Shown here one piece after another: positions 50,455 through 59,110 of a stretch of DNA of 64,000 nucleotides; the stretch's first letter is position 1; the number at the start of each line of letters is the position of its first letter. Both the position numbers and the translations under genes were made by a program. Source of the stretch: Halorubrum sp. CSM-61 (GTDB taxonomy: Archaea; Halobacteriota; Halobacteria; Halobacteriales; Haloferacaceae). Below the pieces are notes generated by a model. It made no database searches. It saw only the letters and a list, made by a program, of their open reading frames with translations, and had not been told where the DNA came from. The stretch spans positions 102,536 through 166,535 of the forward strand of contig NZ_RJJW01000005.1 in assembly GCF_003781945.1 (NCBI RefSeq). Direction: 5' to 3'.

Positions 50455-52371
50455 TCAGTCTTCCGGGGTCGCCGCGGGGGGATCTATCGAACCGTCGTCC
50501 AGCGGTGTCGCGCCGTCGACGACGGCAGCGAGCCCGAGCCGCTCGACCGTTTCCGGCGTCGGAAGTCCGCGCTCGCCCCAGCCGCGCAGCACGTAATACC
50601 TGTCCAGCAGACGGTCGAACGCGTCGCCGTCGACGCCCGGGGTTCCGTCCTCCGCCGCCGAGCGGAGCGGGTCGGGGAGGCGGTCGTCCGCGCGGTCGAA
50701 CCCCTCACGGGCGTTGAACAGCCGCGTGAGCGTCCAGATCCGTTCGCCGGTCGTCGCGAGCGTCGCGACCGGGTCGGTCCGCGCCTCGGGATCGGCTCTA
50801 CGGGCCGGGTCGCCGCGGTCCGTACCGTCGCGATCGGCGTCGGCGACGGTCGGGTGATCGATCGCCGAGAGCCACTCCGCGCCGAGATCGGTCCCGACGG
50901 TCTCGCCGACGAAGTCGTCGACGACGAGGCTCCACAACACGGACCGGGCGTTCTGTTCGCCGACCACGTCGCGGACCCGATCGGCCGGGGTTCGGTCGGG
51001 CCGATCGACGGGTTCGGTGTCCTGCGGTCGCGCGCGACGGTGGCACGCCCCGCGATCGCTCGTCGCGTAGGCGAGCGCGACGCCGACCGCCGCTCGCGGG
51101 TCGAAGCCCGGCAGGGCCATCGACTTCACGGTGGGCACGAGCGCCTGGCCTCCGAACCGAGCCGCGGCGGCGTCGATGCCGTCGGCGAGCGCGTCCGGGA
51201 GTTCCGGGTCCGCGTCGAGGTCGTCCGCGGCCTCTCGAGCCGCGATCGCCTCCAGCAGGCGCTCGGCACCGTCCGCGTCGCCGAAGCCGACGGGACAGTC
51301 GACGATCCCCGCCTCGCCGGCGCGGATCGCCCACGCGACCGCGTTGCCCGCCCCGATCACGTCGAGACCGAGCCGGTCGCAGATCCCGCAGAGTTCGACG
51401 ACCCGATCGAAGTCGCCGATGCCGAGACCGGCTCCGAGCGTGATCGGCGCCGCGCCGCGGGGGACCACCTCGCCCTCGGACGTTTCGATCCGGAAGCCGC
51501 CGGGGACGGCCGGGTCCGTGTCCCGGGCATCGTCGTCCGTCCCCTCGCGACCCGTCGCGCGTTCGAGCGCGGCCTCGACGCCGATGTCGTCGGTACCGGC
51601 GAACCCGGTCTCCGTCCACCCCTCCGCCGCGAGGAGGCCGACCTCGTTCGCGTAGTCGACCGTTTCGATGGTCTCGCCGGCCGCCTGCCACTCGCCCGTC
51701 GCGTCCCGTTCGTAGGCCGCCGCGTCGCGGTCCCGAAGCGCGGCGAGGTCGTCCGGAACCGTCGGTGGGGGATCGCGAGCGACGACCGCCTTCAGCCGCT
51801 TCGCACCCATCACGGCCCCGGCACCGCCGCGGCCCGCGTGGTGATCGCCGCCGTCGCTCGCGACCGTCGCGTACACCGCCTCGCGCTCGCCGGCCGGGCC
51901 GACGCAGGCGACCCCCGCGTCCGGGAACCGCTCGGCCGTCTCGGCGGCGTCGTCTCCCCACGCGTCGCTCGCCGCGATCCGCGCGCGACCCCCCTCGATC
52001 TCGACGCGAACCGGTCGGTCGGCGGCGCCGGTCACGAGCAGCCCCAGGCAGTCGTCGAGCGATCCGGCGAGCCGGTCGGCGAACGCGCCGCCGGCGTAGG
52101 AGTCGAGAAAGCCGCCGGTGAGCGGCGACTTCGTCACTACGGCGTACCGCGTCTCGCCCGGGAGGAACCCCGAGAGCGGTCCGCCGAGAAACGCGAGGAG
52201 ATTCTCCGGTCCCGTCGGGTCCGCTCCCGGCGACAGCTCCTCGTAGAGGTAGCGCGCTCCGAGCCCCTTCCCGCCGACGTAGTCGCGTCGCCACTCTCGC
52301 GGGACGCGCTCGCGGGCGGTCTCGCCCGTCGAGAGGTCGACCCGGAGGACGTGGGTGCGGCTCCGGCTCAT
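50455..52371 (-). CDS. aldehyde:ferredoxin oxidoreductase family protein lacking iron-sulfur cysteines
   Basis: A 638-residue tungstopterin-type oxidoreductase. The N-terminal domain is standard: YVGGKGLGARYLYEEL, FLGGPLSGFLPGETRYAV, KSPLTGGFLDSYAGGAFADRLAG and AGRGGAGAVMGAKRLKAVV. The second pterin region keeps ATSDRGACHRRA and GLDVIGAGNAVAWA. What is missing is the CxxCxxxC triplet that normally precedes the LGAGLGI-type segment (here PGGFRIETSEGEVVPRGAAP), and the fourth cysteine after the late helix reads SLVVDDF. Without a 4Fe-4S cluster it may not use ferredoxin. Divergent from a YqeC-like gene with 105 bp between. Confidence 0.88.
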   Translation of the reverse strand: MSRSRTHVLRVDLSTGETARERVPREWRRDYVGGKGLGARYLYEELSPGADPTGPENLLAFLGGPLSGFLPGETRYAVVTKSPLTGGFLDSYAGGAFADRLAGSLDDCLGLLVTGAADRPVRVEIEGGRARIAASDAWGDDAAETAERFPDAGVACVGPAGEREAVYATVASDGGDHHAGRGGAGAVMGAKRLKAVVARDPPPTVPDDLAALRDRDAAAYERDATGEWQAAGETIETVDYANEVGLLAAEGWTETGFAGTDDIGVEAALERATGREGTDDDARDTDPAVPGGFRIETSEGEVVPRGAAPITLGAGLGIGDFDRVVELCGICDRLGLDVIGAGNAVAWAIRAGEAGIVDCPVGFGDADGAERLLEAIAAREAADDLDADPELPDALADGIDAAAARFGGQALVPTVKSMALPGFDPRAAVGVALAYATSDRGACHRRARPQDTEPVDRPDRTPADRVRDVVGEQNARSVLWSLVVDDFVGETVGTDLGAEWLSAIDHPTVADADRDGTDRGDPARRADPEARTDPVATLATTGERIWTLTRLFNAREGFDRADDRLPDPLRSAAEDGTPGVDGDAFDRLLDRYYVLRGWGERGLPTPETVERLGLAAVVDGATPLDDGSIDPPAATPED

Positions 52372-52476
52372 TCAGACGCTCTGCGCGGCGGAGACGTATC
52401 AATCTGTTCGCCACGGAACCCGATCGCCGGTCTCACCGACCGCCAGACTGAGACGGCCGGGGATCGAACGCCGCGT

Positions 52477-53208
52477 ATGGACCTGACGACCGCGCTCGAC
52501 GCCCGCGACGCCACCGTCTGCGTCGTCGGCGCCGGCGGTAAGAAATCGGTGCTGTTCGCGCTGGCCGACCGGCTCGACCGAGCGGTAGTGACCGCGAGCG
52601 TCCGGATACCGATCTTCGACGACCGGGTCGCCGCGGTGCGCGTGACGGAGGACCCGGCGGCCGCGCTCGCCGAGGCGGGACCCGAGGAGTGGCCGCTCGG
52701 GCTGGTCCCCGAGCGGGAGCGATCCGACCGGTACCTCGGGTACGACGCGGACACCGTCGCCGATCTCGCCGACGCCGCGCCGGGCGCGACGCTCGTGAAG
52801 GCGGACGGCGCGCGCCTCCGCGAGTTCAAAGCGCCGGGCGACCGCGAACCGCAGATCCCGTCGAACGCGGACGTCGTCGTCCCGATCGCGAGCGCGCACG
52901 TCGTCGGCGAACCCCTCACCGAGGAGCTCGTCCACCGGCCGGAGGAGGTCGCCGCGATCACCGGCCGCGAGATCGGGTCGGAGATCCGCCCCGCGGACGT
53001 CGCGACGGTGCTCGCGAGCCCGGCGGGCGGGCTGAAAGGCGTCCCGAGCGACGCGACCGCGATCCCGGTCGTGAACAAGGTCGACGACGAGGCGGACGCG
53101 GCCGCGGCCCGGAAGATCGCGGGGGAGATCCGCCTCCGCGCGAACGTGCCGCGCGTCCTCCTCACGCGTATGACCGCGGACGACCCGGTCGTCGAGGTCG
53201 TCGACTAG
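52477..53208 (+). CDS. YqeC-like molybdenum-hydroxylase accessory protein
   Basis: A 243-residue nucleotide-binding protein resembling YqeC, the accessory protein of selenium-dependent molybdenum hydroxylases. The N-terminal glycine-rich loop reads VCVVGAGGKKSVLFALA (GGKKS rather than the usual GGKTT); later segments are LVKADGARLREFKAPGDREPQIP and IPVVNKVDDE, characteristic of the family. The usual YqeC TTTTH motif is replaced by TASVRIP. No selenium or xanthine-dehydrogenase genes are near; its divergent neighbour is the unusual AOR protein, which suggests a shared job in pterin-metal cofactor maturation. Confidence 0.82.
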   Translation: MDLTTALDARDATVCVVGAGGKKSVLFALADRLDRAVVTASVRIPIFDDRVAAVRVTEDPAAALAEAGPEEWPLGLVPERERSDRYLGYDADTVADLADAAPGATLVKADGARLREFKAPGDREPQIPSNADVVVPIASAHVVGEPLTEELVHRPEEVAAITGREIGSEIRPADVATVLASPAGGLKGVPSDATAIPVVNKVDDEADAAAARKIAGEIRLRANVPRVLLTRMTADDPVVEVVD

Positions 53209-56971: not shown

Positions 56972-59110
56972 ATGTCCGGTGAGGCGGACGACGCGGTGAA
57001 AACGATCTGTCCGTACTGCGGCGTCGGGTGCGGGATCAAGGTACGGCAGGGGAACGACCCCGGCGACGTGAACTTCATGCCGTGGGGCGAGGCGCCCGTC
57101 AACGAGGGACGCGTCTGCATCAAGGGCGGCGCGGCGACCCAGGTCGTCGACCACGAGGAGCGACTCACGGAACCGCTGATAAAGGAAGACGGTGAGTTCC
57201 GCGAGGCGACGTGGGAGGAGGCCTACTCGCGGATCGTCTCGGAGATGGAGCGGATCCGCGACGACTACGGCCCCGACGCGATGGGATTCTTCGGCTCCTC
57301 GAAGACGATGAACGAGGAGAACTACCTCCTCCAGAAGCTCGCGCGCCGGTACGGCACCAACAACGTCGACAACTGCACGCGGATGTGCCACGCCTCGACG
57401 GTGTGGGCGCTCCGGACCAGCCTCGGCGCGGGCGCGATGACGAACAGCATGGCGGACTTAGAGGAGGCGGCCGACGTCTTCTGGATCCAGGGGGCGAACC
57501 CCGGCGAACAGCACCCGATCGCCAACAGCCAGTACTTCCGGCAGGCGGTCCTCGAAGGCGCCACAGTTATCCAGGTCGACCCCCACGCCAACAAGACCAC
57601 CCGGTCGTTCGAGATCGAGGAGACGGACCGGCACATGCACCTCCAGCTCAACCCCGGCGCCGACATCCCCCTCCTCAACGTCGTCCTGAAGACGATCCTC
57701 GAACGCCACGAGGAGGAGCCGGACGCGGGCTGGATCGACGAGGCGTTCATCGACGAGCGCACGGAGGGGTTCGAACACCTGAAGGAGACCCTCGCGGACT
57801 TCGACAAGGCGGCGGCCGCCGAGGAGGCCGGCGTGCCCCTCGAGGACATCGAGCTCGCCGCGGAGAAGTACGCGATGGCGAACAACGCCGCCATCTTCAC
57901 CGGGATGGGGATGAGCCAGCACACCTGCGGCGTCGACAACGTGCAAAACGAGATCAACCTCGCGCTGATCACGGGGAATCTCGGGGAGCCCGGCACCGGC
58001 GTCAACCCCCTCCGCGGGCAGAACAACGTCCAGGGGACCAGCGACGTGGGCGCGATGCCGAACGTGCTTCCGGGCTACCAACTCGTCGACGACGACGAGG
58101 TCCGCGAGTCGGTCGAGGAGGTGTGGGGCTTCGATATCCCCGCGGAGCCCGGACTCACCAACGTCGAGATCTCCCACGAGGCGGGTCACTCGGTGAAGGG
58201 ACTCTACGTGATGGGCGAGAACCCCGTGATGAGCGAGCCCGACGGCAACGAGGTCGAAGAGCGCCTGAAGTCGTTGGAGTTCATGGTCGCGCAGGACATC
58301 TTCATGACGGAGACCGCCGAGTTCGCGGACGTCGTCCTTCCGGCGACGACGTGGGCCGAACGCGGCGGCACCGTCACCAACACCGACCGCCGCGTCCAGC
58401 GGATGCGCGGGGTCGAGAAGGTCCACGGGGACACCAAACACGACCTCGACATCCTGATGGAGGTCGGCAGTCGCCTGTTCAGCGAGGACGAATTCCGGTT
58501 CGACGACGTGGAGGCCGTCTTCGAGGAGCTCCGGGAGGTGTGCCCGATCTACCACGGGATGACCTACGACGGGCTCGGCGAGGGGGGGCTCCACTGGCCC
58601 TGCTACGAGGAGGGCGACGAGGGCGATCAGTTCCTCTACGAGGACTCGTTCGACACGGAGAGCGGGCTCGGTCAGATCGAGGGCGTCCGCCACCAGCCGC
58701 CGAAGGAGGTTCCCGACGAGGAGTACCCGCTGATCCTCACCACCGCCCGGCTCGAGGAGCACTACAACACCGGGACGATGAGCCGACGCTCGCCGACGCT
58801 CTCGCGACAGCACCCCGAGAACTTCGTCGACGTCCACCCGAACGACGCCGCGGAGTACGGGATCGAGGACGGAGAGACGGTGACGCTCCGGTCGCGGCGC
58901 GGCGAGATAGAGGTGAAAGCGCAGGTGACCGAGGACATCAAGGAGGGCGTCGTCTGGACGACGCCGCACTTCGCGGCCGCCTCCGCGAACCGACTCACGA
59001 ACGACGTGCTGGACGACCGGGCAAAGATACCGGAGTACAAGGCCGCTGCGGCCGAAATCGAGGTCGGGATCGATCCCGAAAACGAGGACACGGCGTCCGC
59101 CGACGACTGA
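56972..59110 (+). CDS. formate dehydrogenase catalytic subunit (molybdopterin/tungstopterin)
   Basis: A 712-residue enzyme of the bis-MGD oxidoreductase family. An N-terminal 4Fe-4S motif is CPYCGVGCGIKV with the fourth cysteine in RVCIKGGA. The active-site region NCTRMCHASTVWALRTSLGAGAM matches FDH-H type enzymes with cysteine in place of selenocysteine. Further segments DVFWIQGANPGEQHPI, GMGMSQHTCGVDN and LRGQNNVQGTSDVGAMPNVLPGY follow the family. The C-terminal MopB domain ends with TTPHFAAASANRLT. No beta subunit or fdhD is adjacent. The ATG at 56972 is preferred; a GTG at 56963 is possible. Confidence 0.93.
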   Translation: MSGEADDAVKTICPYCGVGCGIKVRQGNDPGDVNFMPWGEAPVNEGRVCIKGGAATQVVDHEERLTEPLIKEDGEFREATWEEAYSRIVSEMERIRDDYGPDAMGFFGSSKTMNEENYLLQKLARRYGTNNVDNCTRMCHASTVWALRTSLGAGAMTNSMADLEEAADVFWIQGANPGEQHPIANSQYFRQAVLEGATVIQVDPHANKTTRSFEIEETDRHMHLQLNPGADIPLLNVVLKTILERHEEEPDAGWIDEAFIDERTEGFEHLKETLADFDKAAAAEEAGVPLEDIELAAEKYAMANNAAIFTGMGMSQHTCGVDNVQNEINLALITGNLGEPGTGVNPLRGQNNVQGTSDVGAMPNVLPGYQLVDDDEVRESVEEVWGFDIPAEPGLTNVEISHEAGHSVKGLYVMGENPVMSEPDGNEVEERLKSLEFMVAQDIFMTETAEFADVVLPATTWAERGGTVTNTDRRVQRMRGVEKVHGDTKHDLDILMEVGSRLFSEDEFRFDDVEAVFEELREVCPIYHGMTYDGLGEGGLHWPCYEEGDEGDQFLYEDSFDTESGLGQIEGVRHQPPKEVPDEEYPLILTTARLEEHYNTGTMSRRSPTLSRQHPENFVDVHPNDAAEYGIEDGETVTLRSRRGEIEVKAQVTEDIKEGVVWTTPHFAAASANRLTNDVLDDRAKIPEYKAAAAEIEVGIDPENEDTASADD

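What the first reader, a model, noticed from the sequence alone, without database searches (positions are those of the whole stretch)
50455..52371. AOR-family protein that kept tungstopterin motifs but lost all four iron-sulfur cysteines
Aldehyde:ferredoxin oxidoreductases bind a 4Fe-4S cluster through CxxCxxxC in the middle and one later cysteine. Here the region before LGAGLGIGDFD reads without any cysteine, and the late position reads SLVVDDF. The pterin-binding segments (GRGGAGAVMGAKRLKAVV and TSDRGACHRR) are intact. If the metal-pterin is still bound, electrons must leave by another route, or the protein does non-redox or internally balanced chemistry.
Basis: partly seen in the sequence, partly recalled or inferred. 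Interest (0 to 1): 0.78.

Follow-up and report, generated by a model that had tools for sequence, protein, structure and literature searches.

The report
Cysteine-free AOR relative tied to formate dehydrogenase
A tungsten-enzyme relative in salt-loving archaea has lost its iron-sulfur cluster and a key active-site residue in one ancient, well-conserved step, and it travels with formate dehydrogenase and a cofactor-maturation gene, so it is probably a retired enzyme now helping to build or serve formate dehydrogenase.

Summary
The 638-aa AOR-family protein (50455-52371, minus) has no CxxCxxxC and has Asp485 where the fourth cluster cysteine lies. It is not an error or a pseudogene: all 51 aligned haloarchaeal orthologues lack all four cysteines, against 0 to 1 of 30 reference AORs at each site, and dN/dS is about 0.2. 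The loss happened once (100% SH-aLRT), inside cysteine-bearing relatives. It came with loss of catalytic Glu313 (Ala/Ser/Gly) and Glu311 (Arg). The AOR fold is kept (AF2 pLDDT 92; TM 0.83-0.90 to AOR/FOR).

'Pterin segments intact' is only half right. One pterin motif, Arg76, Thr243 and His448 stay; the phosphate/Mg loop and second pterin motif are rebuilt, but cysteine-bearing sisters share that, so it predates the loss.

The new finding is context. In 286 genomes, 145 of 146 with the protein also hold yqeC and 137 of 146 hold formate dehydrogenase (FDH). The genes often cluster (yqeC-mobA-AOR*-fdh). FdhD, the usual FDH cofactor sulfurase/chaperone, is absent from all 286.

Best reading: a non-redox AOR-fold accessory protein of haloarchaeal FDH, probably a W/Mo-pterin carrier or hand-over protein. 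The FDH link is strong; the mechanism is inferred.

The parts
50455..52371 (-). Cysteine-free AOR-family protein (AOR*), 638 aa
   Evidence: AFOR_N/AFOR_C; AF2 pLDDT 92.2, pTM 0.93; Foldseek top hits are all AOR-family
51472..51546 (-). Residues 276-300: where CxxCxxxC sits in other AORs; here a variable acidic linker without Cys
   Evidence: C288/C291/C295 deleted in 51/51 orthologues; residues 280-285 are the only stretch with pLDDT < 50
51451..51459 (-). Residues 305-307 Arg-Gly-Ala, replacing Glu311-Tyr-Glu313 (catalytic Glu)
50914..50919 (-). Residues 485-486 Asp-Asp; 485 replaces the fourth cluster Cys (C494)
   Evidence: 51/51 orthologues
50932..50934 (-). Trp480 in place of Asp489 of the second pterin motif
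   Evidence: 51/51; aromatic also in Cys-bearing sisters
51838..51843 (-). His177-His178 in place of Arg182-Ala183 (pterin phosphate/Mg loop)
   Evidence: shared with haloarchaeal Cys-bearing sisters
52096..52098 (-). Tyr92 in place of Asn93 (Mg-binding position)
51361..51378 (-). Residues 332-337 DRLGLD: retained first pterin motif (Asp338/Asp343)
51040..51045 (-). Cys443-His444: retained active-site His448; Cys443 invariant
52372..52476 (.). 105-bp divergent intergenic region shared by AOR* and yqeC
   Evidence: ORF coordinates
52477..53208 (+). YqeC-family protein (TIGR03172), divergent neighbour
   Evidence: 167 bits against cut-off 73; co-occurs with AOR* in 145/146 genomes
56972..59107 (+). 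Formate dehydrogenase alpha subunit, about 711 aa
   Evidence: TIGR01591 738 bits against cut-off 666

Best explanation
AOR* descends from a cysteine-bearing tungsten oxidoreductase. It lost its electron outlet (the 4Fe-4S cluster) and its catalytic glutamate on one branch and was recruited as a non-redox accessory protein of haloarchaeal formate dehydrogenase (FDH). Most likely it holds or hands over a W/Mo-pterin (bis-MPT, or the GMP-extended bis-MGD form) during FDH cofactor maturation, working with YqeC and the MobA guanylyltransferase, in a lineage that has no FdhD. Shown here: the loss, its single origin and conservation, the AOR fold, and the FDH/YqeC/MobA association. Inferred: that it binds a pterin cofactor at all, that it acts in maturation, and the order of steps.
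For: Loss of all four Cys plus E313, with strict conservation of the replacements (R305, D485, D486) and of the retained pocket. One loss on a 100%-supported branch nested within Cys-bearing sisters. Purifying selection. AOR fold. Co-occurrence in 286 genomes: AOR* with YqeC 145/146 (Fisher p 3e-43), AOR* with FDH 137/146 (p 5e-38), YqeC with FDH 168/169. The three well-assembled genomes first counted as AOR* but lacking YqeC hold only the Cys-bearing sister. YqeC lies within 10 kb in 61 of 101 genomes and FDH types 1-2 in 27 of 103. A RefSeq-annotated plasmid reads yqeC - Mo-cofactor guanylyltransferase - AOR* - hypothetical - molybdopterin oxidoreductase - NuoF-like. FdhD 0/286, own genome included. 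AOR-family proteins bind bis-MPT, and MobA converts bis-Mo-MPT taken from E. coli YdhV to bis-MGD that fits another enzyme (PMC9103625). FdhD normally does sulfuration and delivery for FDH (PMC13197769).
Against: No direct evidence of cofactor binding. Second pterin motif Asp489 and Mg-loop residues are changed, so the cofactor could be different or absent. AOR* is missing from 32 of 169 FDH genomes and is present in 9 without a detected FDH (four of those 9 are under 90% complete), so FDH can be made without it. Co-occurrence counts are not phylogenetically independent. The role of YqeC is itself unknown; deleting it in C. difficile gave no clear phenotype (PMC11448449).
Confidence: 0.45

Rival explanations
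1. AOR* no longer binds a metal-pterin and is a purely structural, assembly or regulatory partner of FDH or its operon.
For: N93, R182, A183 and D489 are all replaced, and C494, which also contacts the pterin, is Asp. Gene association with FDH is independent of cofactor.
Against: R76, G95, T243, D338, D343 and H448, all deep-pocket residues, are 50-51 of 51 conserved. The pocket changes are shared with sisters that keep the cluster and E313 and so are probably enzymes.
Confidence: 0.22
2. It still binds a W/Mo-pterin and catalyses a non-redox or internally balanced reaction on a C1 or aldehyde substrate linked to formate metabolism.
For: His448, Thr243 and Tyr/Phe427 are kept. C1 genes lie nearby in some genomes, such as formate-THF ligase.
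Against: Catalytic Glu313 is Ala/Ser/Gly in all orthologues seen. The tightest partners are cofactor-maturation genes (YqeC, MobA) rather than a pathway enzyme.
Confidence: 0.14
3. Still an oxidoreductase; electrons leave the W/Mo centre through a partner such as the FDH Fe-S subunit or NuoF-like flavoprotein bound where the cluster used to be.
For: Association with Fe-S/flavin FDH subunits in some loci.
Against: E313 was lost together with the cluster. The gap is filled by a disordered acidic linker of variable length, not a conserved interface. Gene order and orientation relative to FDH vary.
Confidence: 0.1
4. Sequencing or frame error, or a decaying gene.
For: None found.
Against: Same state in 51 distinct orthologues, dN/dS 0.21-0.27, confident fold.
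Confidence: 0.01

Closest known systems
Aldehyde/tungsten oxidoreductases (PfAOR 1aor, FOR 1b25, H. volcanii WOR83 9q1t, A. aromaticum AorB 8c0z)
   Same: AFOR_N/AFOR_C domains, fold (TM 0.83-0.90 to AOR/FOR), first pterin motif, Arg76, Thr243, His448
   Different: No 4Fe-4S cysteines, no catalytic Glu313, rebuilt Mg/phosphate loop and second pterin motif
Cys-bearing sister clade (L192-L194, L205, L207, L208, L228-L232)
   Same: Tyr93, aromatic residue at 489, mostly His182-His183 and Asp495; nearest relatives in the tree
   Different: Keep all four Cys and E311/E313; no YqeC, MobA or FDH recognised beside them in the loci read
E. coli YdhV
   Same: AOR-family protein with no known substrate that holds bis-Mo-MPT, purified without a functional cluster (PMC9103625)
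   Different: Described as a cluster-type protein whose cluster is unstable, not as one without cluster cysteines; not known to be FDH-linked
FdhD (FDH sulfurase/chaperone)
   Same: Proposed role: pterin cofactor delivery to FDH
   Different: No sequence relation; FdhD is absent from all 286 genomes searched
YqeC/SelD selenium-dependent molybdenum hydroxylase system
   Same: YqeC and MobA-like partner genes
   Different: Here the enzyme is FDH; SelD over cut-off in only 26 of 286 genomes, not in the window's own

Membership tests
AOR/WOR superfamily (by descent) | AFOR_N + AFOR_C domains and AOR fold | tested here: met
Aldehyde:ferredoxin oxidoreductase (functional) | 4Fe-4S ligands CxxCxxxC plus a late Cys (99% of family, PMC10413684) | tested here: not met
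   0/51 orthologues
Aldehyde:ferredoxin oxidoreductase (functional) | Catalytic Glu313 and His448 (PfAOR numbering) | tested here: not met
   His kept 51/51; Glu is Ala/Ser in 51/51, Gly in some further orthologues
Aldehyde:ferredoxin oxidoreductase (functional) | W-bis-MPT ligand residues | tested here: inconclusive
   R76, G95, D343 kept; N93, R182, A183, D489, C494 changed
Aldehyde:ferredoxin oxidoreductase (functional) | W or Mo content, aldehyde oxidation | not testable with these tools
   needs purified protein
FdhD | FdhD-NarQ domain (PF02634) | tested here: not met
   AOR* is not FdhD and no FdhD was found in 286 genomes
FDH maturation factor (functional role) | Co-occurrence and clustering with FDH | tested here: met
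FDH maturation factor (functional role) | Required for FDH activity or metal loading | not testable with these tools
   needs a deletion strain

The most novel reading that the evidence does not exclude
The AOR fold has been turned into a cofactor sulfuration or delivery chaperone for FDH that, with YqeC, replaces FdhD throughout haloarchaea; the invariant Cys443 beside His444 in the metal pocket would be the natural candidate for sulfur transfer.
Probability: 0.15. Interest if true: 0.85.

Novelty: new variant of a known kind. Interest (0 to 1): 0.62.

Why it matters
A family regarded as redox enzymes (cluster motif in 99% of members, PMC10413684) contains a whole conserved branch that cannot do its textbook electron transfer and shadows another enzyme's gene set. 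That makes two open questions testable in a genetically tractable group: how haloarchaeal FDH is matured without FdhD, and what YqeC does. The papers found here do not describe this branch; RefSeq labels it only 'aldehyde ferredoxin oxidoreductase C-terminal domain-containing protein', so automatic annotation may mislead metabolic models.

Tried and rejected
Frame or sequencing error: rejected. Substitute cysteines at the cluster site: rejected. 'Pterin pocket intact' and, conversely, 'pocket decayed after cluster loss': both rejected, since the remodelling is shared with Cys-bearing sisters. YqeC as a selenium marker here: unlikely, SelD over cut-off in 26/286 only. First co-occurrence count wrongly included three genomes that hold only the Cys-bearing sister; corrected. 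YqeC gave no informative PDB relative. Paper searches for a described Cys-less AOR clade or for FDH maturation in haloarchaea found none; subscription papers and supplements could not be searched.

Full report
OBSERVATION. The gene is one open frame on the minus strand, 50455-52371, 638 aa. Pfam gives AFOR_N 196 bits and AFOR_C 228 bits. Alignment with P. furiosus AOR, A. aromaticum AorB and 30 other AORs puts C288, C291 and C295 in a deletion and C494 at Asp485. The same holds for all 51 distinct orthologues aligned; 29-30 of 30 references carry each Cys. The PfAOR and AorB sequences were taken from the PDB alignments printed. Conserved cysteines of the clade are 156, 331 and 443, none at a cluster position. 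dN/dS against Halorubrum-type orthologues is 0.21-0.27. The gene is therefore real and kept under purifying selection.

THE ACTIVE SITE. From published structures (PMC10413684, AaAorB numbering) the cofactor contacts are Asn92, Ala182, Arg75, Gly94, Arg181, Asp361, Asp504, Ile508, Cys509 and Val510, and the proposed catalytic residues Glu331, His464 and Tyr443. In PfAOR numbering the clade keeps R76, G95, T243, D338, D343, H448 and Y/F427. It changes N93->Tyr, R182->His, A183->His, E311->Arg, E313->Ala/Ser/Gly, D489->Trp, C494->Asp and L495->Asp. The AF2 model is confident (pLDDT 92.2, pTM 0.93) and its only significant PDB relatives are AOR-family structures (1b25 TM 0.86/0.90; 1aor 0.83/0.87). 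The one stretch below pLDDT 50 is residues 280-285, exactly where the cluster loop was; its length and acidity vary among orthologues.

EVOLUTION. A profile of the clade searched over 247 genomes of the phylum found sister proteins (512-566 bits) in a few haloarchaea and one genome outside the order. They keep all four Cys and both Glu, yet already have Tyr93, an aromatic at 489 and mostly His182-His183 and Asp495. Pocket remodelling therefore came first; cluster and Glu313 were lost later. A maximum-likelihood tree built without the trait columns needs one change, with the Cys-less clade at 100% SH-aLRT and the sisters joined at 96% and 99% (quick search, no bootstrap). Several Halorubrum genomes (G021, G033, G068, G231) hold both forms. 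Clade-specific changes concentrate at residues 251-317 and 485. The sister loci read show aldo/keto reductase, amidase/peptidase and similar neighbours, with no YqeC, MobA or FDH recognised (judged from gene sequences, not a family scan).

CONTEXT. In the window AOR* faces yqeC across 105 bp (TIGR03172, 167 bits against 73), and an FDH alpha gene lies 4.6 kb beyond the AOR* start (TIGR01591, 738 bits against 666). Across about 57 haloarchaeal loci the recurring neighbours are YqeC, MobA-like transferase, FDH alpha in several architectures, NuoF-like, HdrA/FlpD-like and TorD-like proteins. RefSeq-annotated plasmids show the same, e.g. Haladaptatus salinisoli yqeC - guanylyltransferase - AOR* - hypothetical - molybdopterin oxidoreductase - NuoF-like. 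In 286 genomes of the order: AOR* in 146, YqeC in 184, FDH types 1-3 in 169. AOR* with YqeC 145/146; AOR* with FDH 137/146; FDH with YqeC 168/169. The lone AOR* genome without YqeC, G133, is 77% complete. YqeC is within 10 kb of AOR* in 61 of 101 genomes with printed coordinates, and FDH types 1-2 in 27 of 103. Orientation varies, so AOR* looks like a separately transcribed accessory rather than a fixed subunit. Gene lists were transcribed by hand. FDH types were set by score bands, and a further FDH-like group (about 53-59% identity over the catalytic part) without consistent YqeC was not counted, so '168 of 169' applies to the three counted types only.

FdhD AND SELENIUM. FdhD is absent from all 286 genomes, the window's own included, while the same search rings in 8 of 14 controls. 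FdhD is needed for FDH sulfuration and delivery in bacteria (PMC13197769). SelD exceeds its cut-off in only 26 of 286 genomes, so YqeC beside FDH is mostly not a selenium marker. Haft and Self proposed YqeC as an SDMH accessory from orphan SelD loci, including Haloarcula (PMC2276186); the SelD-linked YqeC copies here are a second, separate set (L150-L153).

MECHANISM. A protein that keeps the AOR shell and part of the pterin pocket, lacks an electron outlet and the catalytic acid, and follows FDH, YqeC and MobA fits a holder or hand-over protein for the FDH cofactor. Precedent for the chemistry: bis-Mo-MPT taken from the AOR-family protein YdhV can be converted by MobA to bis-MGD that fits another enzyme (PMC9103625). 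Shown: loss, single origin, fold, conservation, association. Inferred: cofactor binding, role in maturation, step order. That AOR* is functionally tied to FDH or its maturation I hold at about 0.75; the carrier mechanism at 0.45.

NOVELTY. The 2026 classification of 92 WOR clades (PMC13328260) names haloarchaea, in the passages found, only for clade 83; the haloarchaeal WOR83-like paralogue in this genome (L001) retains the cluster cysteines. No paper found here describes a Cys-less clade; supplements could not be read. I rate it a new variant of a known kind.

Noticed in passing
286 genomes of the window's order: Haloarchaea with formate dehydrogenase have no FdhD at all, so FDH cofactor sulfuration there must use another route or be absent.
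   Followed up: partly
window 52477-53208 and order-wide: YqeC co-occurs with FDH types 1-3 in 168 of 169 genomes and mostly without SelD; the label 'selenium cofactor biosynthesis' is doubtful here.
   Followed up: partly
L150-L153: Second YqeC copies lie beside SelD and a MobA-like gene, a separate selenium-type locus.
   Followed up: no
L192-L194, L205, L207, L208, L195 (G475): A small Cys-bearing sister clade shares the unusual pocket (Tyr93, mostly His-His, aromatic 489) but keeps the cluster; in Halorubrum an aldo/keto-reductase-like gene follows it.
   Followed up: partly
AOR* residues about 276-300 (51472-51546) and orthologues such as L176: The lost cluster loop is replaced by an acidic linker of very variable length, with near-repeated GETADGD units in one species.
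   Followed up: no
loci L015-L031, clusters c5, c6, c10, c13: Conserved small genes next to AOR* in many genera (DUF7124, DUF7405, a 117-aa protein, a small membrane protein) of unknown role.
   Followed up: no
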